A program made the translations under genes and the position numbers. 64,000 nucleotides of DNA from Hydra vulgaris (lineage: Eukaryota; Cnidaria; Hydrozoa; Anthoathecata; Hydridae), in assembly GCF_038396675.1 (NCBI RefSeq), contig NC_088921.1:72366001-72430000 (forward strand), in the 5' to 3' direction. Of the stretch, positions 9,216 to 56,762 are shown piece after piece (positions within the stretch are counted from its first letter, which is position 1; every line of letters starts with the position of its first letter). Under the pieces are notes generated by a model that was given only the letters and a program-made list of their open reading frames with translations, ran no database searches and was not told the DNA's origin.

Positions 9216-9839
9216 TTAATTTTTAAAATTATCATTTAAATTTACATTTACATTCGCTGAATATTCGTCGACATTTTCTTTTTCGCAGCCTATAGTAAAA
9301 CTTTTTCGAATTTTATTTTCCTTTATATCCTTAATGATTTCTTCATTTATATAACATTCTATCAATAAATGTTTACCATCTTTAGTGATATGATATGTAT
9401 TTTCCGGTGTTGATATTTCTAACTCCACTCCGCACCTTTTTAACAAATTATCTAGTTGATTTAATTTATTATTGCGACAAATATAAATTTTATAATCAGA
9501 AAGACCAATAATATATTTATTTTTTTCTAACATATTATCTATCAAATTAACAGCGCATATAATATATTTATTCTTTAAATTAGTAAAAGTATCTCTTACT
9601 ATTTCATGGAAATTTTTATTATTATCGGCATAATATTTAATTATTTCAGTGTTTGTTTTTTTTATTTCTTCTAAATCTGTATTGATATTTTCTTCATTTT
9701 TTGGAGAAATAATAATTTGTGAATTTTCATAATACACTATTTCACCTTTAAATCTCTCATATAAATCATATAGACTATAATGTTCTAATTTAATATCTTT
9801 ATATTTCATTAATTCTTTTGTAGATGATGTAATAGACAT
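9216..9839 (-). pseudogene. MGF paralogue, C-terminally truncated at the repeat array
   Basis: A 207-residue frame showing landmarks 1-4 of the superfamily: SPKNEEN at 46-52, the Asn-x-x-x-Ile-x-x-Tyr helix near 63-70, LLKRCGVE at 132-139 and FTIGCEKE at 181-188. It stops about 45-60 residues short of its nearest relatives (11921-12754 and the gene ending at 10007), so the whole Tyr-Tyr C-terminal module is missing. The stop lies 11 bases from the last repeat copy, which suggests that array growth or recombination removed the 3' end. It may still make a shortened protein. The start ATG follows TTATTTTAAATAAGA, an AT leader like those of its neighbours. Function unknown. Confidence 0.75.
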
Positions 9840-10006
9840 TCTTATTTAAAATAAGTAATATAAAATTTTATTGTTTCTTGATTTATTAAATTATGATATA
9901 TCATCGTCAAATCAATAAACAAATATAATATGTTTGATGAAGCGAAAAAATAAATAATAATTTAAATTATTTTTTTTATTTTTTGCAAACATATATTATA
10001 ATTATT

Positions 10007-10794
10007 TTAATAGATATTAATATTTAATTCATCACGTAAATAATTCAAGAATTTTAGAAGTTTTATTTCTTGTTGATTAAGTTGAATGTTACTATTAATT
10101 TTTATCAATATTTCCCTATAATAACTTTCCATATTAATAGTGTCTAATAAAATCCATATCATATAATTCATAACAAAATTATCGATCACAAAATCTACAT
10201 TTATATTTTCTAAATATTCATCTACATTTTCTTTTTCGCAACCTATAGTAAAATTTCCTTGAATTTCACAATCTCTCACATCTTTTACTATTTTTTCATT
10301 TATATCAAAATCATTTAACAGTGTATTATTGTTTAAAATAATATTATATGTATTTTTTGGCATTAATATATTTAATTCTACTCCGCACTTTTTTAATAAA
10401 TTAGATAATTTATTTAATTTAGTATTTTTAGTTAAATTATTATTTTTATGTCCAGAAAAAGTAGTAAAATATTTATTTCCATTTATTACATCATGTACTA
10501 ACTTAACAACACATATATAATATTTATTCTTTAAGTTAATAAAAATATTTCTGAGTATTCTGTGGAAATTTTTATTATTATCTATATAATTTTCAATGAT
10601 TTCAATATTTGTTTTTTCTATATCTTTTAAATCCACGTTGGTATTTTCTTCGTTTTTGGGAAAATAAAAATTTTTGATTGTTTAGCGCAAATTATTTCAT
10701 TACCGAGTTTTTTAAACGAAGTATAATTAATTAAGTATTCTAATTTAATATTTTTAAATTTTATTGAATTTTCTTTTGATTGTGTGTTGGACAT
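10007..10794 (-). pseudogene. MGF paralogue broken by a frameshift in the Pro-Lys motif
   Basis: The start ATG at 10794 opens a frame that runs as far as the Pro-Lys motif and then hits a stop at 10627-10629. The rest of the protein (10007-10636, landmarks 2-5 including CGVELNI, FTIGCEKENV and a final Gln/Glu-rich helix) continues in another frame. The shift lies in or beside the homopolymer at about 10651-10660, so a sequencing error cannot be excluded. The downstream frame has no ATG before the second helix. Its FTIGCEKENVDEY is shared with 9216-9839, so the two are close duplicates. Confidence 0.75.
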
Positions 10795-10903
10795 TTTTAT
10801 TATAATAGATTTTATTTAAAAATATGGTGCGTTAAATTCAAATCAGCGAAAATAATATTAATTAAATATAAAGCAAAAAAAACAAATTATCATTTAAAAT
10901 CGT

Positions 10904-11785
10904 CTAATAATAATAATCCGAATCAATATTAAGTCCATCATAAATATAATCGAGAAATTTTAGAAATTTTATTTCTTCTTCACTGACTTAAACGTCGTTT
11001 TTTATTTTTTCTATTAATTTAATATAATAATCGTCTAGATTAACGGTTTCTAATAAAAACCATATTATATCATTTATCACCACTTGTTTATAATTAAATT
11101 TATTTGATTTTATTTTATATTCGTCAATGCAAATAATACTGCGTTCATCATTTATGTAATTTACGGAAAAGTTATCAGATCCTGTATAATAATAAGAGTA
11201 GGTTTTTAAATTTATAAAATCTCTGAAAAAGCTATTTTTTTCTTCTTCTTCTCTTATAATTTTTTCCATTTTTCTATATTCAGAATATTCTGATGATAAT
11301 ATTTCTTTATTCTTTTTAATATAATAATAATCATTAGGCGCTAATGTTGATATTCCTACTCCGCATTTCTTTAATATATTATGTAATTTATATGTATTAT
11401 GATACCTCATATTATATCTAAATCCTTCTTTATCGTATCCAGAGTAACCGGTAAAATAAATATCTTTTTCATTCAATATATCATCTACTAATTCGATATA
11501 ACATATTATATATTTATTCTTTAAATTAATAAAAATATCTCTAAATATTTCATGCAAATTTTTTTTATTATCAATATAATCTTTAATTACTTCCATATTT
11601 GTCGTTTTAATTTTTTCTAAGTCAATTTTAGAATTTTCTTCATTCTTTGGAAAGATAATTAAATTTAAATACTTAATGAAATTGATCTTACTATCTTTTT
11701 TTAATTTTATGATTCGAGAAATAGTACATTTTTTAAATTGTACATCTTTATACTGTAACAAATTCGCTTCAGTAGATACTAGCAT
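10904..11785 (-). pseudogene. MGF paralogue with an in-frame TAA before the last helix
   Basis: The 265-residue frame from 11785 ends at TAA (10988-10990). The same frame stays open behind it to TAG at 10904-10906, and that extension encodes the Glu-Glu-rich terminal helix seen intact in 11921-12754. Landmarks: IFPKNEEN at about 44-51, CGVGI in the middle, and a variant of landmark 4 (YYTGSD). The Tyr-Tyr pair (DDYY) lies just before the stop, so only the last helix would be lost. It may be functional as a shortened form. Confidence 0.75.
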
Positions 11786-11920
11786 GTTCCTGATATTTTA
11801 TTTTAAAATGATCGATATAAATTTATTTATTATATTTTTTTCAAAAATAATATAATCAAATATAATATTAGTTAAAGCAAAAAAAAAAATAAATGATCGA
11901 TAACTTAAAAATTTATCTAT

Positions 11921-12754
11921 TTATTTAAATCCAATAATATCTCGACTATTATTAAGTCTGTCGTAAATATAATCAAAGAATTTTAGGAGTTTTATTTCCT
12001 CTTCGTCGAGTTGAATATTATTTTTTATTTTCTTTATCAACTCAAAATAATAATCATTAAGATTAATAGTTTCTAATAAATACCATATTATATCATTTAT
12101 TACTTCATATCTATTATTGTCGAATTTATCTGCCTTTACTTTATGTTTTTTAACATCACATATATTGCTACCTATATAATTTATTATCGGGTTATTTTCC
12201 GCTCTTATATTTTTTTCCATTTTTTTATACTCATCATATTCTGAAGATAATAGTTTTTTGTTTTTTTTAATATAATAATTATCTTCTGGTACTAATGCTT
12301 TTATCTCTACTCCACATTTCCTCAATGTATTATGTAACTTATGTGTGTTACTATAATACATATTTTCTCTATATATTATTCCACCTTCATATTTATATCC
12401 AGAATAACCAGTGAAATACATATTACCATCCAATATGTCGTCTACTAATTCAATATAACATATTATATATTTATTTTTTAGATTAATAAAAATATCCTTA
12501 AGTATCTTATACAGATTTTTTTCATCGTCGACAGTGTTTTTAATTGTTTCTATGTTTGTTGTTTTAATTTTTTCTAAATCGATTTCTGCTTTAGAACTTT
12601 CTTCATTCTTTGGAAAAATAATTAAATTTAAATAATCGACTCTACATATTATATTAACATAATATTTCTTTATTTTAGTTCGAGAAATTGTGCATTTTTT
12701 TAATTGTAGATCTTTATATTGCATCGAAATTTTCTTAGATAGCGGATTTTCCAT
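11921..12754 (-). CDS. MGF paralogue, 277 aa, intact
   Basis: An unbroken reference member for this block. IFPKNEE lies at 46-52, the KTTNIETI helix near 63-70, the LKNKY end of the second helix near 91-95, LRKCGVEI at 143-150, YIGSN at 192-196, the Tyr-Tyr pair at about 234-235 and an acidic helix (LDEEEIKLL) near 248-256. The start follows a TTTTAAAATAA leader. It is most similar to 12888-13802 and 10904-11785. No signal peptide, membrane segment or known enzyme motif is visible. Confidence 0.85.
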   Translation of the reverse strand: MENPLSKKISMQYKDLQLKKCTISRTKIKKYYVNIICRVDYLNLIIFPKNEESSKAEIDLEKIKTTNIETIKNTVDDEKNLYKILKDIFINLKNKYIICYIELVDDILDGNMYFTGYSGYKYEGGIIYRENMYYSNTHKLHNTLRKCGVEIKALVPEDNYYIKKNKKLLSSEYDEYKKMEKNIRAENNPIINYIGSNICDVKKHKVKADKFDNNRYEVINDIIWYLLETINLNDYYFELIKKIKNNIQLDEEEIKLLKFFDYIYDRLNNSRDIIGFK

Positions 12755-12887: not shown

Positions 12888-13802
12888 TTAATCTGAACTA
12901 CAATCAATTACAGCAATGTTTGGATGATAATTAAGTCTGTCGTAAATATAATCAAAGAATTTCAGGAGTTTTATTTCCTCTTCGTCGAGTTGTATATTAT
13001 TTTTTACTTTCTCTATCAAGTCAAAATAATAATAACCAAGATTTATAGTTTCTAATAAATACCATATTATACCATTTATTACTTTATATCTATTGTCGAA
13101 TTTATCAACTTCAGTTTCATGTTCTTCATCAATATCATATTCATCACAATCTGTAAGATAACGTATTCCAAAATTACTAATTTTATTTTCATATTTTTCA
13201 TCAGTATTATATTCATTGCAACCTATACGAGTCATTCTTGGGTTATCTTCAGCACTCATATTCCTTTCCATTCTTTCATACTCATTATATTCTGATGATA
13301 AATAGTTTTCGTTTTTTTTGATATGATAAGTATCTTTTGGTATTAATACATTTATCTTTACTCCACATTTTTTCAACATATTATTTAATTTTCCTGTATT
13401 TTTACAATTCCATTCTTTTCTATAAGATGATCCATAATCATATTCATATCCAGAGTAACCAGTAAAATAAATATCACCATTCGATATATTATTTATTAAT
13501 TCAATATAATATATCGTATATTTATTATTGATATTAATAAAAATATCTTTAAGCATTTTATGCATATTTTTTTCATCGTCGACATTATTTTTAATTATTT
13601 CTATATTTGTTTTTTTAATTTTTTCTAAATCCTCATCATAATTTTCTTTATTCTTTGGAAAAATAATTAAATTTAAATATTTAAAACCACGGATTATCTC
13701 GGGTTTATTAAGCTTTGTAATTTCAAATTGATAAAGTATACATATTTTTGGTTGTAGATCTTTATATTGCAGTGAAATTTCTTTAGATTGAATATTTTCC
13801 AT
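12888..13802 (-). CDS. MGF paralogue, 304 aa, with an internal duplication
   Basis: Intact member, about 27 residues longer than its neighbour 11921-12754. The extra length lies at landmark 4, where a segment starting at Cys195 (pattern C-N-E-Y, then D-E, then E, ending in Phe211) is repeated 24 residues later from Cys219 to Phe235 (C-D-E-Y, D-E-E, E, F). Other landmarks are IFPKNKEN near 47-54, LKKCGVKI near 143-150, and the acidic terminal helix. The ATG follows TTTTTTTAAAATAA. Function unknown. Confidence 0.85.
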   Translation of the reverse strand: MENIQSKEISLQYKDLQPKICILYQFEITKLNKPEIIRGFKYLNLIIFPKNKENYDEDLEKIKKTNIEIIKNNVDDEKNMHKMLKDIFININNKYTIYYIELINNISNGDIYFTGYSGYEYDYGSSYRKEWNCKNTGKLNNMLKKCGVKINVLIPKDTYHIKKNENYLSSEYNEYERMERNMSAEDNPRMTRIGCNEYNTDEKYENKISNFGIRYLTDCDEYDIDEEHETEVDKFDNRYKVINGIIWYLLETINLGYYYFDLIEKVKNNIQLDEEEIKLLKFFDYIYDRLNYHPNIAVIDCSSD

Positions 13803-13976: not shown

Positions 13977-14756
13977 TCAATTGAGTTTAGCGCATAAATA
14001 ATTTAAGAATTTTAAAAGTTTTTTGTCCTCTTTATTTAGTTTATTTAACTTAATATTATAACCTCATATAGCTCCTACAAAATCAGAATAATACTTTTTC
14101 AAGTTGACGATACTTAACAAAGAATATATTATATCATTTTTAACAATTCATTTTTTAATATCATTTACAACCTTTGGATGATAATCACTAGCAATATCTG
14201 CTTTATCACATCCTATAGTAAAACTTCCTTGAATTTTATTCTCTTTTACATTTTTTTCGATACGAATATATGCATTGAAGTCGTTTAAATAATCTATATG
14301 ATTTCTGGATGTATAAATTTTATCATCGTTTGGTACTAATATTTCTAACTGCACTCCACATTTTCTCAATAAAATATCTAATTTATTCAATAAAATTTGA
14401 CCAGATTTTTTAATTAAAGATTCAGAATAACCATTAAAATAACAATCTCCTTTTGTTTCATTATATACTTCTTCTATAATATATATATTATGTTTATTAC
14501 TTAAATTAATTAAAATATCTTTAAGTATTTCATTGAAGTTTTTATTATTATATATATAATTTTCAAGTATTTTAATATTTTGAGTTTCTATATATTGATC
14601 AGTAAACATAGTAGATTCTTTATTTTTCTCAGCTATAACTAATTTTATCTGTTTAATAATATTATCTCCATGATCGTTTTTATTTTCATATTCAACAATG
14701 TTGATTACATCATGACTAATATTCGCATATAACATTGACATTTCTTTATTTCTCAT
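13977..14756 (-). pseudogene. MGF paralogue with two in-frame TGA codons near the 3' end
   Basis: The frame reads landmarks 1-4 (a diverged AEKNKES in place of Pro-Lys, LLRKCGVQLEIL, FTIGCDKAD) and stops at TGA 14148-14150. The same frame continues past a second TGA at 14064-14066 to TGA 13977-13979, and the extension encodes the Tyr-Tyr module and a Lys/Glu-rich last helix. I place the start at the ATG at 14756 because its N-terminus aligns with those of neighbours. An ATG at 14798 would add a basic 14-residue extension. Paralogues elsewhere are interrupted by TAA and TAG as well, and TGG is used for Trp, so TGA reassignment is unlikely. Confidence 0.7.
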
Positions 14757-14953
14757 AATGTTAGTTCTTTTTTTAAATAATAAACGCGATAACATCATGA
14801 TAAATTTATTTTCTTTAGCAATTGCTTAAAATATAATAAACAATAATAAAATCAATAAACATATATATGAAAACAAAAAAAATAAATAACACTATATACT
14901 ATTCACTATTATTTATTTTTTTTGTTTAATGCAATGTAATATTTACAAATTAA

Positions 14954-15757
14954 TTAATCAATTTCAATAAACTTCATAAACATTAAAAGCTGTTTTTCTT
15001 CTTTACTAAGATAAGATTTAATCTTTAGTTTAAGTATTAATTCTGAATAAACTGAGGATAAACCTAATATATTTATTAAAAACCAACTATTGTTGTCTAT
15101 TTTATATGTTTTAGTTTCGATATTATTTATTATTTTTTCCATATCATTATTGAGATAAATTTCATTAACATCTTTATCAATATCAGATCCTACTACTATG
15201 TTATTACATATATTATTATTTTTTATATATTTAGCCATAGTTTTTTTATACATATTAATATCGTCTTTTTCGCACTTACTTTTATAATTATAAGCATCGC
15301 ATGCATTTTCTGATATAAACACCTTTGTCTTTATACCGTATCTTCCCAACGTGTTATTTAAAGAATATAAATAATAGTCGTCATTGTATATATCATGTTC
15401 ATAAGTATTATAATAATAAATAGTATCATTATGTTTTGCTTTTATTGTTACTCGCTCTACGGCGAACAAAATAAATTCATTTTTAAATTTAGTCAAAATA
15501 GCATTAATCAAAGAATAAATATTTTTGTTCTCATTAATGTAATTTTTAATAATTTTTAAATTAGTTATTTTCACATTTTCATAATCAATATTATCATCTT
15601 TTTCATCTTTCGAAATAACAATTATAAATGCTTCTTTTATTACTCTAATGTTATTTTCTTCTACTGTGAATTTATAGATAGGAGAAAGCTTAAATTTATC
15701 ATTCGCATTATTAATGATGAATGATATCGATTGGGATTCTAATGTTAAATTTTCCAT
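14954..15757 (-). CDS. MGF paralogue, 267 aa, diverged
   Basis: Intact but the most diverged gene of the first block. The Pro-Lys motif is Ile-Ser-Lys (VISKDEKDD, about 47-55), landmark 3 is LGRYGIKTKVF, and landmark 4 is VVGSD near 197. The final helix is LSKEEKQLLMFM. It is the last - strand gene before the divergent switch to the + strand block. An AATTCAAAT word (reverse of the AATTTGAATT promoter element) sits at 15816-15824, 58 bases before the start. Confidence 0.8.
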   Translation of the reverse strand: MENLTLESQSISFIINNANDKFKLSPIYKFTVEENNIRVIKEAFIIVISKDEKDDNIDYENVKITNLKIIKNYINENKNIYSLINAILTKFKNEFILFAVERVTIKAKHNDTIYYYNTYEHDIYNDDYYLYSLNNTLGRYGIKTKVFISENACDAYNYKSKCEKDDINMYKKTMAKYIKNNNICNNIVVGSDIDKDVNEIYLNNDMEKIINNIETKTYKIDNNSWFLINILGLSSVYSELILKLKIKSYLSKEEKQLLMFMKFIEID

Positions 15758-15955: not shown

Positions 15956-16708
15956 ATGGATATTCTAAAATCAAAAGATGAACTCACACTTAACAATGAT
16001 ATACGGTATAATTTTACATTTCATCGTTCTAAAGATTGTGAAGCGTTTTTAGTAGCATGTCCTAAAATTAGTACAAATCATAGTTATAATTCAAAGGAAG
16101 ATTATGATAATATTAAAAAAATAATAGCTGATAATCTGGAAGTAATAAAAAACTATATAAATGATGATAAAGATCTTAATGAATTAATTAGATCTATGTT
16201 TCTCAATTTAAAGGATAAATATATATTATTTCTATTAAAAGATATAGATGAACATTCAATTGGAAATTCGTATTTAACTGGTTTCAAAGAATATAAACAA
16301 GATACTATATGTGGAGAACATTTAAAGGCGTTAGATAATTTATTAAAAAAATATAAGGTAAAATTAGAAGTATTTATACCTGAAAATGATTATCATATGA
16401 TTGAAAATAATATAGTAATGTCAGTATACGCTCAAGTGTACGAAAAAATCATAAAAGACGTTGAGCAGAATCATATTTATGAAAGTTTCACTATAGGAAG
16501 TGATGAATGCGACATTGAAAAAGAAAATACGTATATTGAAAAAAACCACAATGAATGTAGTACTAAATATCAATGTCCTTTAATTTATATGACTTATCTA
16601 GAAAATTATTATATAGAATTAATCAATAAAATGGTAAATAATACTCTTAACGAAGAAGAGAATAAAATTATGGAATTTTTAAATTTAATTAAATTTTATT
16701 ATGTTTAA
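15956..16708 (+). CDS. MGF paralogue, 250 aa, first + strand member
   Basis: VACPKIST at 33-40 replaces the usual hydrophobic Pro-Lys motif. The second helix ends LNLKDKY near 83-89, LLKKYKVKLEVFIPEN spans about 129-144 and FTIGSDECD is at 178-186. The Tyr-Tyr pair and the NEEENKIMEFL helix end the protein. FTIGSDECD resembles the FTIGC(E/D)K of the - strand block, while the NDDKDLNELIRS helix resembles the + strand genes that follow, so it bridges the two subfamilies. GATTTGATTT lies at 15878-15887, 68 bases upstream. Confidence 0.85.
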   Translation: MDILKSKDELTLNNDIRYNFTFHRSKDCEAFLVACPKISTNHSYNSKEDYDNIKKIIADNLEVIKNYINDDKDLNELIRSMFLNLKDKYILFLLKDIDEHSIGNSYLTGFKEYKQDTICGEHLKALDNLLKKYKVKLEVFIPENDYHMIENNIVMSVYAQVYEKIIKDVEQNHIYESFTIGSDECDIEKENTYIEKNHNECSTKYQCPLIYMTYLENYYIELINKMVNNTLNEEENKIMEFLNLIKFYYV

Positions 16709-17118: not shown

Positions 17119-17955
17119 ATGGAGGCTGAACCGCATAAATTAAAATTTGGAAATATTGGAACTCACGAGATTAGCATTAATATAGAAAATTCAAACGAAC
17201 GTGAAGGTAATATATTATTTGTCAACTATTCAAAAGATAAAACATATTATGAATTATCGCCGGAAGATTTAGAAGATAAAATAAAACAAATACAAAAAGA
17301 TAATATAATGACAATCAAATATTATATAGAAAATAATAAAGATCTTAATGAATTAACTAAATCTATATTACTTAATTTAAAAAATAAATACATATCATCT
17401 TTAATCTATTCGATAGAAGAAAAATTTTCTCTTGAAGATAGTATTGATATTCCTCATTGTTGGCGTATATATGATACCAATAATTTGTATTTAACTACCT
17501 GCTCTGAATATAAAAATGAAGAAGATGATACATGTTGTAGTAGATCTATGAATAAGTTAGATAAAATGTTAAAAAAATACGGAATACAAATAGATGTGTT
17601 TACGACTAAAAATAAATATAAATATAGTATAATAGAATATGGATTTTCTCTCTCGGAGTATGCATTCTGTAAAGCATATAAAAGTTTCGAGAAACATCTT
17701 ATGAAAGATAATGTTTATAAGATTTTAACTTTAGGTGATGATAAGCATAATTTTAATACCAAAAAGGAAAATGTAAATGATGAAAAAAACTACGATAAAT
17801 GCTGGCTATGTGGAACTCTCTTAATGGATATGATTCATTTAAAAAATTATTATTTAGGTTATATGAATGATGATGAAGAGATAAATAGTATCGTTAATAA
17901 CGAAGAAAAGCAAAAAATAATAGAATTTTTAGAGTCTATTAGATTAGATTCTTAA
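17119..17955 (+). CDS. MGF paralogue, 278 aa, with a CxxC near the C-terminus
   Basis: Opens the tandem subfamily that runs to 22482, marked by a KLKFGN N-terminus. The Pro-Lys motif is reduced to YSKDK (37-41). NNKDLNELTKSILLNLKNKY spans about 72-91, LKKYGIQIDVF is at 151-161 and LTLGDDKH at 203-210. Cys228-Trp-Leu-Cys231 just before the Tyr-Tyr module, with a Cys-Cys at 139-140, could bind a metal, but the pattern is only partly kept in sister genes. Function unknown. Confidence 0.85.
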   Translation: MEAEPHKLKFGNIGTHEISINIENSNEREGNILFVNYSKDKTYYELSPEDLEDKIKQIQKDNIMTIKYYIENNKDLNELTKSILLNLKNKYISSLIYSIEEKFSLEDSIDIPHCWRIYDTNNLYLTTCSEYKNEEDDTCCSRSMNKLDKMLKKYGIQIDVFTTKNKYKYSIIEYGFSLSEYAFCKAYKSFEKHLMKDNVYKILTLGDDKHNFNTKKENVNDEKNYDKCWLCGTLLMDMIHLKNYYLGYMNDDEEINSIVNNEEKQKIIEFLESIRLDS

Positions 17956-18280: not shown

Positions 18281-19076
18281 ATGTATGATATAGAGAATCA
18301 ACCTAAATTAAAATTTGGAAATTATTATGCTTATATGATTGGTATTAATGATGTATATTCGGATAATGACAAACGCAGAGATAGTATATCGTTAGCTCAT
18401 TATCCAAAAGGTAAAACATATTATGATCATGAAGAATTTCCAAAAGATATAGAAGATGAAATAAAACAAATAGAAGAAAATAATATAAAAACAATAAAAT
18501 ATTATATAAATAATAATAAAGATCTTAATGAGTTAACTAAATCTATATTACTCAATTTAAAAAACGAATATATAACTTCTTTATTTAATTCTACTGAATT
18601 ATTTAACTACTCCAAAGAAGAATCTCTTCATCTTTGTGAAAATTGGTATTTAACTAGTTGTTCTGAATATAATTATGAAGAAAATTATGCATCTCGTACT
18701 AAATGTTTAAATAATTTAAATAACGTATTAAAAAATTATAGAATAGAAATAGATGTATTAACAACAAAAAATAAATATAAATATGATATAATCAAAAATG
18801 GAAATTATCTCAAAACAACTATTGCATATGAAAATTTTGAGAAAGATATTAAAAAGGATGATCTATATAAAATTTTCACTCTAGGTGATGATAAATTTCA
18901 CTCTGAAAATAAAGATGTGAATAATCTATGTGTGGTTTGCGAAGACTTATTACTAGATATGATTTGTTTAACTGATTATTATTGGAAATTAATGAAAGAT
19001 AATCAAAAAAAATATTATTCTTAGTGAAGAAGAGCAAAAAATAATAGAATATTTAGAATCAATCAAAATAATTTAA
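18281..19076 (+). pseudogene. MGF paralogue with a 3' frameshift in an A8 run
   Basis: Starts with the same MYDIENQPKLKFGN as 20550-21347. YPKGK is at about 41-45, landmark 4 is FTLGDDKFH, and NNLCVVC precedes the Tyr-Tyr module. The frame leaves the family alignment at the A8 run 19005-19012 and stops at 19022-19024. The Glu-Glu-rich terminal helix continues in another frame to TAA at 19074-19076. Only the last helix is affected. A homopolymer sequencing error is a simple alternative to a real mutation. Confidence 0.75.
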
Positions 19077-46879: not shown

Positions 46880-47677
46880 TTATACGAAATGATATTCAAT
46901 GATATTACTAATATTATTTTGCAAAAGTTCTCGCTCTAATATATAATAGACACTTTTTTCGCAAATATATTCAATTGATTCATCTGTTAAAATATTCTTA
47001 GAACATTTACTATATTCTTTATTCAATGATTTCATTATAGAAATCAGAAATTCCTTCACAATATCAACATCTAATTCATTTCTTGAATCATCATCGTAAT
47101 CATATATATATCTGTCTATTTCGTCTGATGTTCCTAATTTAACGTGTTTATATCGACTAATGTCTTTTTTAATGAATCTTATATTTCTAGATAAAATATC
47201 ACATTCATATGGAGTAATCATGAAAACATCTATAATAACACCTATTTCGCGCGCAATTGTATCTAGTGTGAATAATATATCTTTATACTGAAGACTATCG
47301 TCGCAAATATCTTTAAGTTTTACTTTGCGGCATTTATCAGAACCTTTACTTTCTTTGTAAGCGATTATATAATAATTATCTATTATGTCTTTAAACATCT
47401 TTACAAATAAATCAATATAAATATTGTGAATATTTAAAGGAACCTGATCGTTTATCACACATTCAAAAGATAATTTTTTAGAACAATATTTGTTAATTTC
47501 GTCTATATCTTTATAATATTTATCAATGTTAAAGTTATGCGGCTTATTGTCGCATTTATTCCACTTCAAATATGAAGTTAAATAATACTTATATTTTGGC
47601 CTTTTTTTAATTTTAATGTCGTTATTATAAAATGATCTATAATTTGGCGCGATAAATTTAGAGGATATTTTGCCCAT
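46880..47677 (-). CDS. MGF paralogue, 265 aa, diverged
   Basis: Assigned to the family from landmark 4 (YKHVKLGTSDEID), the LDTIAREIGVIIDVFMITP landmark 3 and overall size. Landmark 1 has lost the Pro-Lys (SYLKWNK). The protein has several Cys (CSKKLSFEC, KCRK, KCSK) without a clear metal pattern. Membership is less certain than for neighbours. The start follows a GCGCGATAAATTT-side region with no exact promoter word. Confidence 0.7.
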   Translation of the reverse strand: MGKISSKFIAPNYRSFYNNDIKIKKRPKYKYYLTSYLKWNKCDNKPHNFNIDKYYKDIDEINKYCSKKLSFECVINDQVPLNIHNIYIDLFVKMFKDIIDNYYIIAYKESKGSDKCRKVKLKDICDDSLQYKDILFTLDTIAREIGVIIDVFMITPYECDILSRNIRFIKKDISRYKHVKLGTSDEIDRYIYDYDDDSRNELDVDIVKEFLISIMKSLNKEYSKCSKNILTDESIEYICEKSVYYILERELLQNNISNIIEYHFV

Positions 47678-47869: not shown

Positions 47870-48610
47870 ATGGCTAATATCGCTGGATTAAAATTTCACT
47901 TATTTGGCGACATTGATAATGAACAAAAATACAGTACAAAATCTAATTCAGCTAGTCAAGCTCGGATAGAATCTTATCATATAGAGATGTTCTTCATACC
48001 GAAAAATCTAAGTAATATTATATATAATTCAGAAGAAGCAGATAAAATAGCATATGAGAATATATCTATATTAGATAATATTTATAAAACATATAATCAA
48101 GATCAACTTGTAAATCTAAGAAAAGACATATTTAAAGAAATAAAACGAATATATGTTTTATTTGGATCTATGTTTAGTAATATGCAAATATTTAGAAACT
48201 CTAAAATATCATATGAATCAATTTATTCTATGGAAGATCATAAATATAACTATAATTTCGTTAAAATAAATCATCAAGCTAATGAATCTTCTTGTCTTCT
48301 AGATTTTTATACATCAATATATCCATTGAATGTTAATAAATATTACAATAATCATTATAATAAAGATATCACTAAAAAGAAAAGAGTCGAAAAAATCACT
48401 CTAGGACTTATAAAATCTAGATCTGTTGAAAGCGTTAAAAAGAAAGAACGTAATGAAGATAAATATTATAGATATGATCAAATTTCTTTATCCAGTATTA
48501 TAATATTTCTAACTGGAATTGACAGATTATATTGCAAATACAAAGAAAATAGAGAAAATATAGAAAAAATAATCAGAGTTATTAAGAGAATTTCAAATGA
48601 ATATATTTAA
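47870..48610 (+). CDS. MGF paralogue, 246 aa, intact
   Basis: First gene of the last + block. Landmark 1 is FFIPKNLS (about 41-48), landmark 2 is ENISILDNIYK, landmark 3 is reduced to SCLLDFYTSIYPLNVNKYY and landmark 4 is KITLGLIKSRS. The end, IIIFLTGIDRLYCKY, is shared in form with LKFLTGIENAYK of 48745-49482, so the pair are duplicates. No known domain. Confidence 0.82.
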   Translation: MANIAGLKFHLFGDIDNEQKYSTKSNSASQARIESYHIEMFFIPKNLSNIIYNSEEADKIAYENISILDNIYKTYNQDQLVNLRKDIFKEIKRIYVLFGSMFSNMQIFRNSKISYESIYSMEDHKYNYNFVKINHQANESSCLLDFYTSIYPLNVNKYYNNHYNKDITKKKRVEKITLGLIKSRSVESVKKKERNEDKYYRYDQISLSSIIIFLTGIDRLYCKYKENRENIEKIIRVIKRISNEYI

Positions 48611-48744: not shown

Positions 48745-49482
48745 ATGGGAAAAAAAGATGATAAAAAAATAGAATTCTTTGTTACGCCGAAAAATTTCAG
48801 CGTAATAATAAAGGAAAAAAACGCTTCAAATAATGATGATTATATAGTATTATATTTTATACAAAATAAAAGAGTATTATATAGTCATTATTCTTTTAAC
48901 GGTACAAAATATTTAAGCGATAATATATATTTATTCAATAACTTTTATGTAAAAAGTGATGAAAAAAACCATCAAGAAATAAGAAAAGATATGTTAGAAA
49001 AAATAAAAAACGAATATACTATATTCATGTACAGATCAAATAATTCAAATACCTGTGGAAATTGTATGATTACATCAAATGATATATTTAAGACAAATAA
49101 TGGAAAACTAGAAATAGATGATAAGTTTGTTATATTAAACGATCAAGCATATGAAGCTGGAATTACTATTGATTTATATAGTTCTCCGATTCCTCTAAAT
49201 TTACATAAATACAAAAATGAAATTAAACATATTAGTGCGAAAAAAGCTAAAGAAAACACTGTAAAAATTTCATTAGGTAATGTAAAATCAGCTACAAACA
49301 TAAAAGAAAAAACATTAAATAATCATGATAATAATTATTTAACATTATCCTCAATTTTAAAATTCCTCACTGGAATTGAAAACGCTTATAAGAATAATAG
49401 CGAAATTTCTATTAGTAAGATTAAATCGGAAGAAATTAAAAACGCAATTAAAAATATTGAAATAGTTATGGGCGAGTGTTGA
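48745..49482 (+). CDS. MGF paralogue, 245 aa, intact
   Basis: Start set at the ATG at 48745 (MGKKDDKK). Landmark 1 is FVTPKNFS very near the N-terminus (about 13-20), so the first strand is shorter than usual. There is a TCGNC motif near the middle, an ILNDQAYEAGITIDLYSSPIPLN landmark 3 and a KISLGNVKSA landmark 4. Its second residue is Gly, so N-myristoylation is possible, but the next residues (KKDDKK) are poor for it. Confidence 0.82.
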   Translation: MGKKDDKKIEFFVTPKNFSVIIKEKNASNNDDYIVLYFIQNKRVLYSHYSFNGTKYLSDNIYLFNNFYVKSDEKNHQEIRKDMLEKIKNEYTIFMYRSNNSNTCGNCMITSNDIFKTNNGKLEIDDKFVILNDQAYEAGITIDLYSSPIPLNLHKYKNEIKHISAKKAKENTVKISLGNVKSATNIKEKTLNNHDNNYLTLSSILKFLTGIENAYKNNSEISISKIKSEEIKNAIKNIEIVMGEC

Positions 49483-49771: not shown

Positions 49772-50494
49772 ATGAGCGAATTAATATTATCAAAGTTGCC
49801 ATTTAACGCTTTTAGATATGTAAGTTGCGACTTACAAGAAAGATCTATAGTACGCTTCCAACCTAAAAATTATGATGAAATGCATATAGATGGCATAGCT
49901 GAGAAAAAAATTATTTTGCGAAAAAACATGGATATTATCAATAATATTTATGCTAATGCTAGTGATGAAAAATTAAAAGAAGTAAAAATTCAGCTCTTAA
50001 ATAGATTAGCTAATGAGTATGTTATATACATGCGAAAACAGCCTTGCAATAAAGTACACGATAATAATAATTTAATATCATATTTTGATGTAGTTAATAA
50101 TTCCGACTTAAAGAAAAATACTAAACCATTATTATTTAAATTAAATGACGACGCTATTAAAGCTGGCGCGCTAATAAGTATATTAATAAATAGATATATA
50201 CCTGGTCAAAATCAATATCGCAATTATTATAATGATAATGGTTACATTAAATATGTGCTGGGCAAAAATACCTCAAACGAAATAGAATCTAGCGCGGAAT
50301 TTAATGATTGCAATTTCTCGACTAATTATTCGTTAACAGATATATTATTGTATTTAGTATTATTCTTTTATTACAAATATAATGATAATGTGTCAAATAA
50401 ATCTAATAAATATCTTATCGATAGTAAAGAAGACGAAGATGACTTAAAAAAGGCAATAATTACTTTACATAAAATAGCAGAAATAGAGTTATAA
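49772..50494 (+). CDS. MGF paralogue, 240 aa, intact
   Basis: Landmark 1 is VRFQPKNYD (about 27-35), landmark 2 is KNMDIINNIYANASDEKLKEVK, a LANEYVIYMRK strand, landmark 3 LFKLNDDAIKAGALISILIN, landmark 4 IKYVLGKNTSNE, and LTDILLYLVLFFYYKY with the Tyr-Tyr pair. The LTDILLYLVLFFYY stretch is hydrophobic enough to look like a short membrane segment but aligns with the soluble helix of relatives. Confidence 0.84.
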   Translation: MSELILSKLPFNAFRYVSCDLQERSIVRFQPKNYDEMHIDGIAEKKIILRKNMDIINNIYANASDEKLKEVKIQLLNRLANEYVIYMRKQPCNKVHDNNNLISYFDVVNNSDLKKNTKPLLFKLNDDAIKAGALISILINRYIPGQNQYRNYYNDNGYIKYVLGKNTSNEIESSAEFNDCNFSTNYSLTDILLYLVLFFYYKYNDNVSNKSNKYLIDSKEDEDDLKKAIITLHKIAEIEL

Positions 50495-50594: not shown

Positions 50595-51269
50595 ATGGCC
50601 GAATTTATCTATAGAATTGATAAAGAGATTAAAATCAGATCTAACAAAAGAAAACAAGAATATTATATAAAAATCGCCGGATTTCCAGCTATACTATCTG
50701 GCTTCTATTATATATTGTTTTTGGCGCCAAAAGTTAAATTGACTAAAATAAACAACATAGAAATTAAAGAAGACAATGAATATGATTATACTGAGTCCGT
50801 CAGAGAAAAAAATAAAAATATCCATAAATGGCTAGATAATATAGATGAACTAAGAAAAATATTTTTGCAAGATATAGCGGATACATATGATTTATATATT
50901 TGCAAATATAATCTGAATAACGAATATATCGAAGTTAAGTCAGATTATATACCTAATAGAGCAAAAGAAGTATTTTTTCTTCTAAGCAATATAGATGAAC
51001 ACGCGCTAAAATGCGGCGTGAAGATGAAGGTATGTATTAACATAGATTATTTCGCCAAAAGCCGCGATAGCAAAAAAATGAAAGATGTTAAGCCGGATTT
51101 TATAACTATAGGAGCCGCAAAAAAAAATAGACCTGTTCCCATCGATAAATTATATATGGGAAAATTACAGCCGTTTGGATTATTTGAATTAATGTATAAA
51201 ACTATGTGCTTACGAGTTTACTCCTCTATAGATATAGATAAAATATTATTTAAAATCGACCAGATATAA
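50595..51269 (+). CDS. MGF paralogue, 224 aa, intact
   Basis: Landmark 1 is LFLAPKVK (about 41-48), landmark 2 is EKNKNIHKWLDNIDEL, a DIADTYDLYICKYN strand, landmark 3 LLSNIDEHALKCGVKMKVCIN and landmark 4 FITIGAAKKN. The end, LYKTMCLRVYSSIDID, lacks the acidic last helix. DTYDLYICKY is shared with 51316-51993 and 52628-53284, which makes these three a subfamily. GC content is visibly higher than in genes nearer the terminus. Confidence 0.84.
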   Translation: MAEFIYRIDKEIKIRSNKRKQEYYIKIAGFPAILSGFYYILFLAPKVKLTKINNIEIKEDNEYDYTESVREKNKNIHKWLDNIDELRKIFLQDIADTYDLYICKYNLNNEYIEVKSDYIPNRAKEVFFLLSNIDEHALKCGVKMKVCINIDYFAKSRDSKKMKDVKPDFITIGAAKKNRPVPIDKLYMGKLQPFGLFELMYKTMCLRVYSSIDIDKILFKIDQI

Positions 51270-51315: not shown

Positions 51316-51993
51316 TTGATCTATTTGATTATTATATTATTAATTAAAGCAAATAAAATAACTATTTTCAAATATGATGATCTATTATTCGTATATCTAC
51401 AGAATAGATATGATGATATATGTGATGAATTTCACAATTATACTTTAATTTTCCACCCAAAGAAAAAGAAAATAATAAATGATGATAGCCGCATAGAATA
51501 TTTATATAACATGATGATAGCTAATAGTAGATCACTAAGTACTTACTTTGGCGCCGATAAACAAATTCTTAAGACGCTAAAACGCGGCATATTAGTCGAT
51601 ATATCAAATGTATATGATATATATATATGTAAATATAACGCTAAAAGAAAATATTCAGATGTTACTTGGCAAGATATAATGAATATAGATAATGATTTTA
51701 AGCATAGATTTATATGCGAGCTCAATCAAGAACTATTTAATAGCGGCGTTAAATTTAATCTAATAATAGCCGATTACATTCGTGATAATGATAATAACTT
51801 GACATTGAAATATAATATAGAGCTCGGCTCTACGGCCTCGAAAAATTATCTGCCGCGCAAATATAGTGCCGAAAATTACAATAAATTAAAATTTAACGGA
51901 CTAAGTTTATTTGCTATATTTTTTAATGTGCTGCGCTTACAAGAAGCTAACAATGATATATTAAAACTTATAGCTGAAATATGTGAAACATAG
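51316..51993 (+). pseudogene. MGF paralogue without a usable ATG
   Basis: The frame contains IFHPKKKK, a MMIANSRSLSTYFGA helix, VYDIYICKYN, LNQELFNSGVKFNLIIAD and IELGSTASKN, and is unbroken to its stop. It has no ATG before the Pro-Lys motif: the only early initiator-like codon is TTG at 51316, and the first ATG is about 70 codons in. In the sister 52628-53284 an ATG stands where this gene has AATAACTATTTTC. It may be a start-codon loss or a case of unusual initiation. Confidence 0.65.
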
Positions 51994-52627: not shown

Positions 52628-53284
52628 ATGTTTAGATACGCATCACATAGATTTCTTTGTTTTTACGCTAGCTTTAGCGAGAATGCTAGATTCTTAATAA
52701 GCGGCAATGATGATTATTATATAATCCTTCATCCTAAAAAAATAGATGATTTTAAAGAAGATAAGAATTCATTGGAAAAAAAATATACAAGTAAAATAAA
52801 AGAAGATAACTTAAAGATGCTAAATAGTTACTTTGGTGCCAGCAAAAAAGTTCTTAAAATTCTAAAGAAGAAAATTATGGAAGATGTTATAAATACTTAT
52901 GATTTTTATTTTTGCAAATATCATTATGATAAGGATACTGGCGAGTATAAATATATTCCTGTTAGCGCGGCCGACTTAACTAATAAGAGTTATATTTATT
53001 ATATATTGCGCGAATTAATAAAACAATTTAAAAAAGCAGATATAACAATAAAAGCTTATATTACTGATTACTTCGATGAGCGAAATTTCGCCAAAATAAA
53101 TTCGGCGCCGGACTTTAACACTATCGATCTAATAATGCCACGGCGCGGCTACAGTTATAGTAAACATTCTAATGATTTAATATTCAATGATATATCACTG
53201 TTCAATATAATAATAAATACAATGTGTTTGACGGATTGTGGTGATAGTAAAATATTAAAATTAATAAAAGATATATCTAAATAA
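52628..53284 (+). CDS. MGF paralogue, 218 aa, intact
   Basis: Landmark 1 is IILHPKKID (about 31-39), landmark 2 is KEDNLKMLNSYFGASKKVLKIL, VINTYDFYFCKYH, landmark 3 LIKQFKKADITIKAYITDYF and landmark 4 DFNTIDLIMPRRG, where Gly has become Asp. The end is LFNIIINTMCLTDCGDSKILKLI. The SYFGA helix is shared with 51316-51993 (TYFGA). One of the shortest intact members. Confidence 0.83.
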   Translation: MFRYASHRFLCFYASFSENARFLISGNDDYYIILHPKKIDDFKEDKNSLEKKYTSKIKEDNLKMLNSYFGASKKVLKILKKKIMEDVINTYDFYFCKYHYDKDTGEYKYIPVSAADLTNKSYIYYILRELIKQFKKADITIKAYITDYFDERNFAKINSAPDFNTIDLIMPRRGYSYSKHSNDLIFNDISLFNIIINTMCLTDCGDSKILKLIKDISK

Positions 53285-53416: not shown

Positions 53417-54346
53417 ATGTCAAGCGCCGCCTCAGTGAAAAATATTGAAGACGGTTCTCCTCCTACAAAAAAAAGAAAATGTATTATATATAAATCTAAT
53501 GATGAATCAAATAAAACACGCACTGGTAAATTTCAATATGATAAAATTACTCCAGCAATTAGTTTTTCCATGGAAGACATCATACTTGACTCAAAAGAGC
53601 CAAATAAAAAATATAAAATTACTCTTAGTTTATGGCCAAAAGAATTTAATTCAATATTTATTAGAATGGGACAAAATGATGCTATTACAGGCTATCATAA
53701 TCATAAACCAAAATGGAACGAAGAAGCTATAAAAATGTTGAAATATTATCGTATATTACGTGGAAATAACTTAAGAGAGATATTAGATCACCATTATCTT
53801 TTTCCATATAATGTTTTAAATAAAAGAGAAGTAAAAAAACAATTTTTAGAACATTTAAGAGACGATTATAATATATTTCTATTTAAGAAAGAAAATGATA
53901 CTGGAAAATTTTCAGGTATGACTTTATGTGAATTAATTGATTGTAATGGTAGATTTAAAAATATATTGTATGATATAGATAAATCTGCTAAGGAATTTGG
54001 AATATTATTACCAATCATTATTGAAAATCTCAATGATATTAGTACTTTTGGAAAACTTATAGATAATTATATTAAAACTGATAAAAACAATAATGATGAG
54101 AAAAAATTTCACTCATTTAATATTGGATATCATGAAGAAGTGTTTAATAGATTTTATGATTCGAAAAAATACTACACAAATAATGATGGAGATCTAACTA
54201 AAAGTTTTAATTTAAATGAAATTATATTTAGATTACTTTGTCTAAGTGGTAATAAAGGATATCATGAATTAAAGGAAAATTTCCTCGACGAAAGCGAATA
54301 TGATTTAGAAAAAGCAAAAAAATTTATCGATTATATTTGTGATTAA
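53417..54346 (+). CDS. MGF paralogue, 309 aa, with a nuclear-localisation-like N-terminus
   Basis: The largest family member. About 45 extra N-terminal residues precede the normal fold and include SPPTKKRKC (14-22), which fits a classical monopartite nuclear import signal. Landmarks: LSLWPKEFN (1), EEAIKMLKYYRIL (2), DIDKSAKEFGILLPIIIENL (3), FNIGYHEE (4), and a C-terminal LNEIIFRLLCLSG with a Leu/Glu-rich last helix. The +1 frame at 53445-53732 is a shadow. An intact extra module suggests a distinct role or location. Confidence 0.84.
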   Translation: MSSAASVKNIEDGSPPTKKRKCIIYKSNDESNKTRTGKFQYDKITPAISFSMEDIILDSKEPNKKYKITLSLWPKEFNSIFIRMGQNDAITGYHNHKPKWNEEAIKMLKYYRILRGNNLREILDHHYLFPYNVLNKREVKKQFLEHLRDDYNIFLFKKENDTGKFSGMTLCELIDCNGRFKNILYDIDKSAKEFGILLPIIIENLNDISTFGKLIDNYIKTDKNNNDEKKFHSFNIGYHEEVFNRFYDSKKYYTNNDGDLTKSFNLNEIIFRLLCLSGNKGYHELKENFLDESEYDLEKAKKFIDYICD

Positions 54347-54468: not shown

Positions 54469-55260
54469 ATGGCCGAAAATCAAAATACAATAAATAACGA
54501 AAATGATGAGATTAATGATTTAAAATTCTCTTATAATCTTATTATGAACTCTAATGTTCTCGAAATACTTAATGAATCAGTTAAATTTGATGAAGGCGAG
54601 AAAGAATATGATTATTATTTATCACACGTAGTGAAAATGGACAAAGAAATTATATGTAAAAACTGGAATGATGTTAAATGTATTCCATGCTGTGAAACTT
54701 TCATTCGTGAAAGATATCTAGAATGTATAAAAAATGATAATTTATTAATGCTAGACAAAATACTTAATAAAGCTAAATTTAATAAAGAATTATGTAGAAA
54801 AATAAAAGAAAAAATTATAAATGATATTGATGATTATTATAATATAGCATTGTTTAAAAAAGATAGGGGAGGTGATAATAGTACTTATGATTTTGTTACG
54901 ATGAATGAAATATTTGACAGTCAATTCAATTATACTTATCTTTTACATGATTTTAATAAAAACATAAAAGATTTAAATAATGGAAAAAAGATAAAAATTT
55001 ACACTGAAATTGCGTTTACTATTCCTAACATTAGAGCATTATATCATAATGCTGATTGCTTATTAAAAGAACTTACTTATATTGAGATCGGAGATTTGAC
55101 TCCTGATAATAAATATGATTATGATATTACGGACAAAAAAATTAATAAGTTTAGTTTATACAACATAGTCTTACGGTTATTTAATTTAGAACATTTAGAC
55201 CCTAATAATCAAAAAGACGCAAAATATTTAAATTTGATCGCTAACATTTGTAGTTGTTAG
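54469..55260 (+). CDS. MGF paralogue, 263 aa, diverged
   Basis: Landmark 1 is not clear (YYLSHVVKMDKEI occupies its place), with a Cys-rich CIPCCETF after it. Landmark 2 is NDNLLMLDKILNKAKF, then IDDYYNIALFKKD, landmark 3 LHDFNKNIKDLNNGKKIKIYTEI and landmark 4 TYIEIGDLTPDN. The C-terminal FSLYNIVLRLFNLEHL matches FNLNEIIFRLLCLSG of 53417-54346, which identifies it as that gene's duplicate without the basic N-terminus. Confidence 0.8.
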   Translation: MAENQNTINNENDEINDLKFSYNLIMNSNVLEILNESVKFDEGEKEYDYYLSHVVKMDKEIICKNWNDVKCIPCCETFIRERYLECIKNDNLLMLDKILNKAKFNKELCRKIKEKIINDIDDYYNIALFKKDRGGDNSTYDFVTMNEIFDSQFNYTYLLHDFNKNIKDLNNGKKIKIYTEIAFTIPNIRALYHNADCLLKELTYIEIGDLTPDNKYDYDITDKKINKFSLYNIVLRLFNLEHLDPNNQKDAKYLNLIANICSC

Positions 55261-55295: not shown

Positions 55296-55371
55296 TGTTA
55301 AATTTCATAGGTATAATAGATTATCTGTTTAAATTTATATTTTATTATTAATAAACTATATTATTACATTA

Positions 55372-55991
55372 ATGATGAACAAATTATTTATGAAGCTAAA
55401 AATAAATTATTTAAGATTATTAACTTAAATGGATCTATACGCACTGATTATTCCGATATTATTTTAAAAGAAGATCCTAAATACAATTATCATATGGTAA
55501 TATTTCCGAAAGAAATACAAATATATAAATATAATACACATGAAGATTATTTAAAAAACACAAAAATGAAGAAAGCCGATAAGATTGATATATTTACACT
55601 TTACTCGCCCCACTCTCGTGAAGACATTGAATTAACTAAAAAAGCACTAAAGTTCGTAAAAGAAAATTATATACTTTGTATGTGTAAAACAAATAAAAGA
55701 AATAATATATTTACTAACGTTAAAGATTTTAGCGAAATAACACATAATATTGATATATTTAATAATTATTTATATACTTTAAATGATTTATCATATAGAG
55801 CCAATATAATAATACCTTTGTATGTTATAGTTAAATCTAATAATGTCAACAATGATGATTTGTTTAAAAGAGACATTGTAACTATTAATTTAGGCTCTAG
55901 CGCGCCAAAAGAAAACAAGAAAACATTGAATAATAATTCTCATGATCTTTTCGACTTATTTAATATAATAATTAATTTGTTAATGTTATAG
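55372..55991 (+). pseudogene. MGF paralogue with a 5' frameshift or an internal start
   Basis: From the ATG at 55494 a 165-residue frame begins directly at the Pro-Lys motif (MVIFPKEIQ) and continues with ADKIDIFTLYS, VKENYILCMCKTN, LYTLNDLSYRANIIIPLYVI and VTINLGSSAPKE to LFNIIINLLML. The same frame is open upstream to about 55310 without an ATG, while a good ATG-ATG at 55372-55377 lies in another frame. So either the first module was lost by a frameshift near the start, or translation begins at 55494. Confidence 0.65.
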
Positions 55992-56083
55992 AGAATTAAC
56001 GTGAGCGCATTAATAAATCATTATATAATTTAATGTAATTGACTGATTATTGGCGGCGCCAAATATATTTTTTTGCTTAAATT

Positions 56084-56093
56084 AATTTGACAT
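56084..56093 (+). promoter_or_regulatory. AATTTGACAT promoter element
   Basis: Variant word 42 bases before the ATG at 56136, preceded by TTTTTTTGCTTAAATT. Confidence 0.4.
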
Positions 56094-56135
56094 TAACATA
56101 ATTATATTAAAATAACACTATTAATAGCTAGCAAA

Positions 56136-56762
56136 ATGAGTCAATTTATTTTTGCTAAAAATGCCGAATATAATATACTTAGTCATAGTGACAAAAAAAG
56201 CAGATATTATTTCTTAAATCTGCTTCCCAAAAAAATAGATAAAGTCGCCTCAAAAAACATTAAAGAATATTTAGACAATATAAGAAATAATAATATAAAC
56301 GTGCTTGGTGGCCGAGGTGATTACTCTGCTTCTTTCGGCGAAGTCAAAACACAACTTATAAATAAATTCATAGATGAGTATTATATATATATGACATCAT
56401 ATGAGAAAAACAACAATGTTAGAGAAAAAACAGATAAATATATAAAACTAACTTCAGTTGATATTATAAATAGGAAAAATGAGTTCTCTAGTCTTCTGTA
56501 TGATATAAATTCTCACTTATATCAGGTTGGCGCGAAGGCTGAAATATTTTTCACTAATAATCCTTCTGATATTATTATAGCTTCAAAGGAATTAGATTCT
56601 ATTAAAATAGGAACCGCTAAAGCGAAAAATAATAGTTGCGGATGCTTAACTAAAACTTGTATTTGCGACTTTGGATTATGTAATATATTAATTAAAATAC
56701 TACATCTCACGCGCGCTGACGAGCGCGAATGTGAGCTAATAGATAGAATATTAATGAGTTAG
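56136..56762 (+). CDS. MGF paralogue, 208 aa, last of the family
   Basis: Landmark 1 is LNLLPKKID (about 27-35), landmark 2 is NNINVLGGRGDYSASFGEVKTQL, a FIDEYYIYMTS strand, landmark 3 LLYDINSHLYQVGAKAEIFFTNN and landmark 4 SIKIGTAKAKN. A CGCLTKTCICDFGLC segment after landmark 4 places four Cys (C-x-C, C-x-C, C) where relatives have none, and could bind metal. It ends with LCNILIKILHL. It borders the conserved genes. The opposite-strand frame at 56522-56710 is a shadow. Confidence 0.84.
   Translation: MSQFIFAKNAEYNILSHSDKKSRYYFLNLLPKKIDKVASKNIKEYLDNIRNNNINVLGGRGDYSASFGEVKTQLINKFIDEYYIYMTSYEKNNNVREKTDKYIKLTSVDIINRKNEFSSLLYDINSHLYQVGAKAEIFFTNNPSDIIIASKELDSIKIGTAKAKNNSCGCLTKTCICDFGLCNILIKILHLTRADERECELIDRILMS

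What the first reader, a model, noticed from the sequence alone, without database searches (positions are those of the whole stretch)
9216..56762. One superfamily of about 49 paralogues fills 47 kb
Every gene between the terminal arrays and the core seems to derive from a single ancestor. Each keeps a Pro-Lys strand motif, an Asn-x-x-x-Ile helix, a Leu-rich helix leading to a strand ending in Pro, an Ile/Leu-Gly strand end, and a C-terminal helical module, usually with Tyr-Tyr. I cannot link it to any named family, including ankyrin-type ASFV multigene families. An expansion of this size usually reflects a host arms race, but the role is unknown. This is the best candidate for an undescribed system in the window.
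Basis: partly seen in the sequence, partly recalled or inferred. Interest (0 to 1): 0.88.

Follow-up and report, generated by a model that had tools for sequence, protein, structure and literature searches.

The report
Viral gene family filling 47 kb
A stretch of large-virus DNA inside an animal chromosome assembly (most likely of the freshwater polyp Hydra) carries nearly fifty copies of one protein family that matched nothing in the libraries searched, probably a diversified set of small proteins used against host defences.

Summary
Of 49 gene loci between 9,216 and 56,762, 46 match a leave-one-out superfamily profile above all 49 control ORFs; two are borderline and one 107-aa fragment fails. 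Left and right profiles detect each other (hhalign 95.8%, score 63.5; shuffled maximum 13.8), and structure models from non-overlapping alignments share most of their strand and helix order. Plain HMM searches did not join the right-hand blocks, so the link rests on profile-profile and fold evidence. No convincing relative appeared in Pfam, the PDB, BFVD (one model) or two capped searches of 5.8 billion proteins.

New context: the window lies in a 911.5-Mb, 15-contig assembly (inferred Hydra vulgaris AEP), inside a virus-like block of roughly 180 kb; host repeat sequence was found beyond both sides, but the exact edges were not. Most genes have poly-T runs after their stops, paralogue pairs show purifying selection, and the nearest relative is usually the neighbour. 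Most likely they are soluble intracellular binding proteins aimed at varied host factors, like other viral multigene families; targets are unknown. The kind of system is known; the protein family, and perhaps the fold, is new.

The parts
1..7618 (.). Tandem array, about 180 copies of a 42-bp AT-rich unit
   Evidence: TRF
7895..9198 (.). Second tandem array, different unit, abuts the first family gene
   Evidence: TRF
9216..9839 (-). family locus 1 (207 aa)
   Evidence: leave-one-out profile score 118
10007..10815 (-). family locus 2, in two pieces
   Evidence: score 155 for piece 10010-10681
10988..11785 (-). family locus 3
   Evidence: score 132
11921..12754 (-). family locus 4; protein modelled
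   Evidence: score 166; model pLDDT 81.6
12888..13802 (-). family locus 5
   Evidence: score 146
14148..14798 (-). family locus 6, C-terminal module missing
   Evidence: score 85; alignment
14954..15757 (-). family locus 7
   Evidence: score 83
15956..16708 (+). family locus 8
   Evidence: score 134
17119..17955 (+). family locus 9
   Evidence: score 125
18281..19024 (+). family locus 10
   Evidence: score 150
19387..20211 (+). family locus 11
   Evidence: score 152
20550..21347 (+). family locus 12 (ATG chosen by me; one search lists a TTG at 20496)
   Evidence: score 164; own-genome hits only at C2:72.34-72.39 Mb
21673..22482 (+). family locus 13
   Evidence: score 159
22648..23361 (+). family locus 14 (ATG chosen by me)
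   Evidence: score 91
23491..24300 (+). family locus 15
   Evidence: score 67
24857..25510 (+). family locus 16, short
   Evidence: score 58
26561..27073 (+). family locus 17, short
   Evidence: score 71
27341..28048 (-). family locus 18
   Evidence: score 69
28204..28944 (-). family locus 19
   Evidence: score 74
29148..29918 (-). family locus 20, in two pieces
   Evidence: score 94 for piece 29343-29927
30152..30845 (-). family locus 21, in two pieces
   Evidence: scores 29 and 50
31047..31829 (-). family locus 22
   Evidence: score 88
32025..32927 (-). family locus 23
   Evidence: score 110
33156..34052 (-). family locus 24
   Evidence: score 96
34424..35161 (+). family locus 25
   Evidence: score 110
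35305..36045 (+). family locus 26 (ATG chosen by me)
   Evidence: score 107
36215..37111 (+). family locus 27
   Evidence: score 102
37222..38046 (+). family locus 28
   Evidence: score 113
38350..38958 (-). family locus 29, C-terminal module missing
   Evidence: score 64; alignment
39130..39879 (-). family locus 30
   Evidence: score 47
40127..40849 (-). family locus 31 (stop-to-stop extent)
   Evidence: score 43
41360..41988 (-). family locus 32, in two pieces
   Evidence: score 31 for piece 41548-42006
42199..43011 (+). family locus 33, in two pieces, borderline
   Evidence: scores 15.0 and 18.8; 43% identical to locus 34
43108..43923 (+). family locus 34, weak
   Evidence: score 25.7; A1-A4 profile score 29 against shuffled maximum 14.9
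44160..44834 (+). family locus 35, in two pieces, weak
   Evidence: scores 26.5 and 26.0
45042..45887 (-). family locus 36
   Evidence: score 38
46019..46756 (-). family locus 37
   Evidence: score 32
46880..47677 (-). family locus 38, weak
   Evidence: score 26.6
47870..48610 (+). family locus 39
   Evidence: score 36
48745..49482 (+). family locus 40 (ATG chosen by me)
   Evidence: score 44
49772..50494 (+). family locus 41
   Evidence: score 33
50595..51269 (+). family locus 42
   Evidence: score 42
51316..51993 (+). family locus 43; start uncertain (TTG listed; I used 51343, an ATT, in alignments and)
   Evidence: score 30; start codons
52258..52581 (+). candidate locus 44, fragment, NOT supported by profile
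   Evidence: score 12.3, below its shuffles; linked only by BLAST
52628..53284 (+). family locus 45; protein modelled
   Evidence: score 64; model pLDDT 70.4
53417..54346 (+). family locus 46
   Evidence: score 45; no homologue among 1,035 candidates
54469..55260 (+). family locus 47, borderline
   Evidence: score 21.1
55494..55991 (+). family locus 48
   Evidence: score 45
56136..56762 (+). family locus 49, next to the non-family genes
   Evidence: score 61
61329..61892 (+). neighbour: dual-specificity phosphatase gene
   Evidence: PF00782, E 2.2e-14
62023..63999 (+). neighbour: start of an open frame of about 2,330 codons with Gly-Gly motifs that continues past the window
   Evidence: relative P0005 at 54% identity over 39% of the queried part

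Best explanation
Shown: one protein superfamily of about 49 loci fills 47 kb of a virus-like block in an animal-sized chromosome assembly; members share a predicted alpha/beta core with C-terminal helices, mostly lack a strong hydrophobic segment, mostly have poly-T runs after their stops, show pairwise purifying selection, and are usually most similar to a neighbouring gene, with the closest pairs in the left two-thirds and only remote ones near the neighbouring non-family genes. Inferred: they are soluble intracellular binding proteins (adaptors or decoys, not enzymes), separately transcribed by viral machinery and spread by local duplication, each copy tuned to a different host factor or variant, so that copy number and divergence give host range and defence evasion, as with other multigene families of large DNA viruses.
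For: One family. Virus-like block in a host chromosome. Poly-T ends: first run of seven or more T within 100 nt of the stop in 27 of 42 family genes (A runs 10 of 42); 1 sense T7 in the coding DNA of 46 genes against 6.1 in synonymous shuffles, lowest of 200 shuffles 1. Local duplication: the best paralogue is the adjacent gene in 24 of the 39 genes with a hit at E < 1e-3 (42 tested; 4.8% by chance); best-hit identity 29-75% in 28 left genes, 23-37% in 14 right genes, some over short stretches. Constraint: dN/dS 0.27-0.78 in 35 of 36 listed pairs, one not computable; only pairs up to four genes apart and over 35% identical were listed. Soluble: maximum 19-residue hydropathy 0.50-1.67 in 42 proteins, one above 1.6. 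No enzyme-like signature: apart from one Asn, one Lys and Tyr, conserved positions are hydrophobic or structural.
Against: No target, expression or phenotype data; no positive selection shown. A near-invariant Asn (39 of 40) and Lys (36 of 40) leave a ligand or catalytic role open. 15 of 42 family genes lack a T7 within 100 nt, A runs in coding DNA are also below their shuffles (68 against 79.0, sd 4.9), and only 6 of 16 sampled non-family genes have a downstream T7. The dS estimates are simple Nei-Gojobori on AT-rich DNA. If locus 43 starts at its TTG, its N-terminus is hydrophobic. The virus is unclassified: no match in the block for DNA_pol_B, Capsid_NCLDV or D5_N.
Confidence: 0.45

Rival explanations
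1. Not one but two to four superfamilies: the 9-42 kb block is one family and the 42-57 kb genes are other AT-rich families that only look alike.
For: Iterated HMM search from six right-hand seeds finds only 1-3 members; A3-A4 profiles do not match (score 12.6, reached by 16 of 30 shuffles) and A2-A4 is weak; loci at 42-45 kb score 15-26.5; the Leu position is kept in only 7 of 12 right-hand rows.
Against: A1-A2 score 63.5 and A2-A3 68.2 against shuffled maxima 13.8 and 16.7; models from separate alignments agree in 79 of 103 aligned residues against 0.27-0.54 with offsets; 49 controls never exceed 18.5.
Confidence: 0.12
2. Virion or nucleoprotein family: many related structural subunits rather than host-directed proteins.
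For: Many copies, conserved core, soluble.
Against: Best-hit identity down to 23% and six split loci fit dispensable accessory genes better; mean net charge -0.7, range -15 to +9 in 41 proteins, argues against DNA packaging.
Confidence: 0.15
3. Enzyme family, for example an alpha-beta-beta-alpha hydrolase.
For: The two models draw PP2C-type phosphatases or 20S proteasome subunits as weak Foldseek top hits; one Asn is nearly invariant.
Confidence: 0.1
4. The block is not integrated: an infecting virus's contig was placed in the chromosome by the assembler.
For: Most genes are open; no read data; the exact left and right edges were not seen; an N gap lies at 72.55 Mb.
Against: No N in L066, L067 or L068. 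Host repeats lie beyond both sides: a Tc3-type transposase in L068 (E 4e-12) and a repeat in L067 shared at 91% with chromosome C14 (L055).
Confidence: 0.12
5. Host-kept genes: the animal uses the family itself, for example in antiviral immunity.
For: Purifying selection.
Against: About 20% GC, long single-exon frames among virus-like genes and poly-T ends; selection may pre-date integration; two close-relative searches find the family only in this block.
Confidence: 0.05

Closest known systems
African swine fever virus multigene families (MGF100/110/300/360/505)
   Same: Paralogue clusters near the ends of a DNA virus genome of up to about 190 kb; host-response functions and variable binding surfaces (PMC13342108, passages seen). 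Poly-T gene ends in ASFV are recalled; no paper found here showed them.
   Different: No ankyrin- or ASFV-named Pfam match in 41 of 49 loci scanned; one superfamily of about 49 instead of five clusters; no sequence link found.
Poxvirus terminal families (ankyrin/F-box, Bcl-2-like, BTB-kelch; recalled)
   Same: Location near genome ends, local duplication (recalled).
   Different: No recurrent match to such domains in 41 of 49 loci (one member hits Orthopox_F7 at E 0.076); no fold match.
NCLDV-like inserts in Hydra vulgaris (PMC5294986, passages seen)
   Same: Large-virus DNA in a Hydra genome; the paper cites earlier descriptions of larger inserts and its table places Hydra sequences with Mimiviridae.
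   Different: Whether this block is one of those inserts was not tested; three core-gene models did not match in the block.
Unnamed contig of 216,277 bp (ENA source) encoding P0005
   Same: Relative of the polyprotein-like gene next to the family, 54% identity over 39% of the query.
   Different: Its other genes could not be reached; two capped family searches returned no protein.

Membership tests
ASFV multigene families | Profile similarity to a known MGF or ankyrin model | tested here: not met
   Pfam scan of 28 + 13 members (41 of 49 loci): no model hit by more than two members, best E 0.0033, none ankyrin- or ASFV-named. That Pfam holds ASFV MGF models is recalled.
ASFV multigene families | Clusters near the ends of the viral genome | tested here: inconclusive
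   The family abuts tandem arrays, but virus-like DNA continues beyond them.
Asfarviridae-like virus | Long polyprotein with Gly-Gly sites (pp220-like) | tested here: inconclusive
   Open frame of about 2,330 codons with Gly-Gly motifs seen by eye; no convincing Pfam or PDB match; similarity to pp220 itself not tested, idea recalled.
Nucleocytoviricota | Core genes: DNA polymerase B, major capsid protein, D5 helicase-primase | tested here: inconclusive
   PF00136: 17 matches, none in the block; PF04451: none, but no control rang; PF08706: none, 3 of 14 controls rang. Divergent genes would be missed.
Nucleocytoviricota | Own multisubunit RNA polymerase | not tested
   PF00562 search was sent repeatedly and never answered.
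Poxvirus terminal families | Ankyrin, BTB/kelch or Bcl-2-like domain | tested here: not met
   No such Pfam match in 41 of 49 loci; no fold match in the PDB (both models) or BFVD (first model).
Expanded multigene family of a large DNA virus (general kind) | Neighbouring copies most alike, graded divergence, constrained frames | tested here: met

The most novel reading that the evidence does not exclude
An undescribed protein fold serves as the single scaffold of a virus's host-interaction arsenal: about 49 paralogues of one binding module in an unclassified large DNA virus of a cnidarian, caught in the host chromosome with most members still open.
Probability: 0.35. Interest if true: 0.85.

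Novelty: new variant of a known kind. Interest (0 to 1): 0.62.

Why it matters
Large DNA viruses of early-branching animals are hardly known (my judgement). A well-predicted fold without detectable match, repeated about 49 times, would be a new example of one scaffold turned into many host-directed proteins. If the host is Hydra, expression, targets and the age of the insertion become directly testable in a laboratory animal.

Tried and rejected
Ankyrin, ASFV or poxvirus families: no match. Plain HMM iteration fails for the right-hand blocks, so profile-profile comparison with controls was used. Sequence searches of the PDB with the two family profiles gave only insignificant hits (E 0.058 and 0.13 at best). 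An enzyme reading of Foldseek's top hits was set aside. IMG/VR scans with the 412-aa neighbour, P0005, P0004 and the 367-aa neighbour gave no relative; no family member was scanned there. The phage collection held no relative of P0004. Protein searches with the left family alignment (7,991 candidates scored) and with 53417 (1,035 candidates) gave no hit. No tRNA genes in the window. Right-flank ORFs that looked transposon-like by eye have no Pfam match (5 of 5); the host character of that side rests on a repeat shared with C14 (1 of 22 loci from other chromosomes). Literature searches on giant-virus, NCLDV or asfarvirus-like elements in Hydra or cnidarians listed no paper that I recognised as describing this element; I saw listings, and passages of PMC5294986, which says that inserts in Hydra had been described before.
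Full report
WHAT WAS CHECKED. The finding claims that about 49 paralogues of one superfamily fill 9,216-56,762. Open frames and BLAST give one component of 41 segments plus small clusters of 4, 4 and 3. Iterated HMM search, with 2,037 decoys and no decoy hit, links 31-33 of 47 segments of 150 aa or more from six left and middle seeds, but six right-hand seeds stay at 1-3. By plain HMMs only the 9-42 kb part is one family.

PROFILE COMPARISON. Alignments of the left block (A1, 28 members), right block (A2, 9), a trio at 47.9-50.5 kb (A3) and a pair at 42.5-43.9 kb (A4) were compared by hhalign, with 30 column shuffles and a reversed copy each. Scores, shuffled maximum in brackets: A1-A2 63.5 (13.8), A2-A3 68.2 (16.7), A1-A3 36.8 (13.4), A1-A4 29.1 (14.9), A2-A4 26.1 (17.4), A3-A4 12.6 (18.6, no link). 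Single segments against leave-one-out profiles: 48 of 57 segments, from 46 of 49 loci, score 25.7 or more. All 49 non-family control ORFs (90-700 aa, many overlapping or antisense) score 18.5 or less against the full profile, while three pieces in L010, about 24 kb left of the window, score 50-143 and belong to the family. One locus (52258) fails; 42199 and 54469 are borderline.

WHERE IT IS. The window is C2:72,366,001-72,430,000 of a 911.5-Mb assembly of 15 contigs. A Hydra paper gives transposable elements as 596 Mb or 65.3% of the Hydra vulgaris AEP genome, i.e. about 913 Mb (PMC12220107, section 5 read), which fits; the host name is my inference. That paper's main text has no occurrence of 'giant virus', 'NCLDV' or 'endogenous viral'. 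Samples on both sides show low-GC, gene-dense DNA to about 72.50 Mb. Beyond it, L067 has no N; its ORFs have no Pfam match, but its last 418 bases share a repeat with chromosome C14 (91% over 257 and 97% over 72 bases). On the left, L068 (72.312-72.319 Mb) holds a Tc3-type transposase piece (E 4e-12). The exact edges were not found; the block is roughly 180 kb. Own-genome searches with two single members gave 10 matches each, all within this block; they reach close relatives only and counts are lower bounds.

WHAT VIRUS. Beside the family lie a dual-specificity phosphatase gene and an open frame of about 2,330 codons with Gly-Gly motifs, which stops once and is followed in the same frame by another open stretch. 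Its only relative among 7,990 scored candidates is P0005, 993 aa, 54% identity over 39% of the query, on a 216-kb ENA contig. Three core-gene Pfam models did not match in the block, so the virus is unclassified here, and 'viral' rests on gene layout, composition, the polyprotein-like gene and the repeats; a pp220-like polyprotein is a lead from memory.

HOW THE GENES BEHAVE. T runs of seven or more start within 100 nt of the stop in 27 of 42 family genes (A runs in 10 of 42); one sense T7 occurs in the coding DNA of 46 genes against 6.1 expected, but A runs there are also below expectation (68 against 79.0). In 16 sampled genes outside the window none has a sense T7 and 6 have one downstream. 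A TTTGATT word lies upstream in 17 of 46 genes. Listed paralogue pairs have dN/dS 0.27-0.78. The nearest relative is the adjacent gene in 24 of 39. Best-hit identity is 29-75% in 28 left genes and 23-37% in 14 right genes; the closest pairs lie at 10-34 kb, not right at the array. In 42 proteins one 19-residue window is slightly above 1.6 in hydropathy; for locus 43 the tested sequence leaves out a hydrophobic stretch that a TTG start would add.

READING. The evidence supports a mostly soluble, separately transcribed family that grew by local duplication, the remote copies nearest the non-family genes. That the proteins bind and neutralise host factors is inferred by comparison with other viral multigene families (PMC13342108, passages seen), not shown. 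The kind of system is known; the protein family is new to the libraries searched.

Noticed in passing
L013 1-4000 (C2:72,450,001-72,454,000): A second small tandem family on the minus strand: three of the five ORFs are related (33-63% identity); none scores as a member of the 49-locus family (at most 18.5).
   Followed up: partly
L009 and L067; window 24395-26035: An intergenic repeat with the word CTGTCTGCGACGC recurs in L009 and at 24.4-26.0 kb of the window; L009 and the right edge (L067 1-3000) share repeats at 75-97% identity.
   Followed up: partly
L066 5978-6552 and L010 166-740: A 575-bp stretch occurs twice, 2.2 kb apart, at 100% identity: a very recent duplication inside the viral block.
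   Followed up: no
L038 1-999 (C2:72,327,001-72,328,000): A long open frame with a TRAF/MATH domain (E 1.4e-9) near the left edge; viral or host origin not settled.
   Followed up: no
window 1-7618: The 42-bp unit consensus of the large array holds an inverted TTTGC...GCAAA word.
   Followed up: no
L012 3-5999: The polyprotein-like frame stops once and is followed in the same frame by another open stretch; a broken gene or two genes. Not read through.
   Followed up: no
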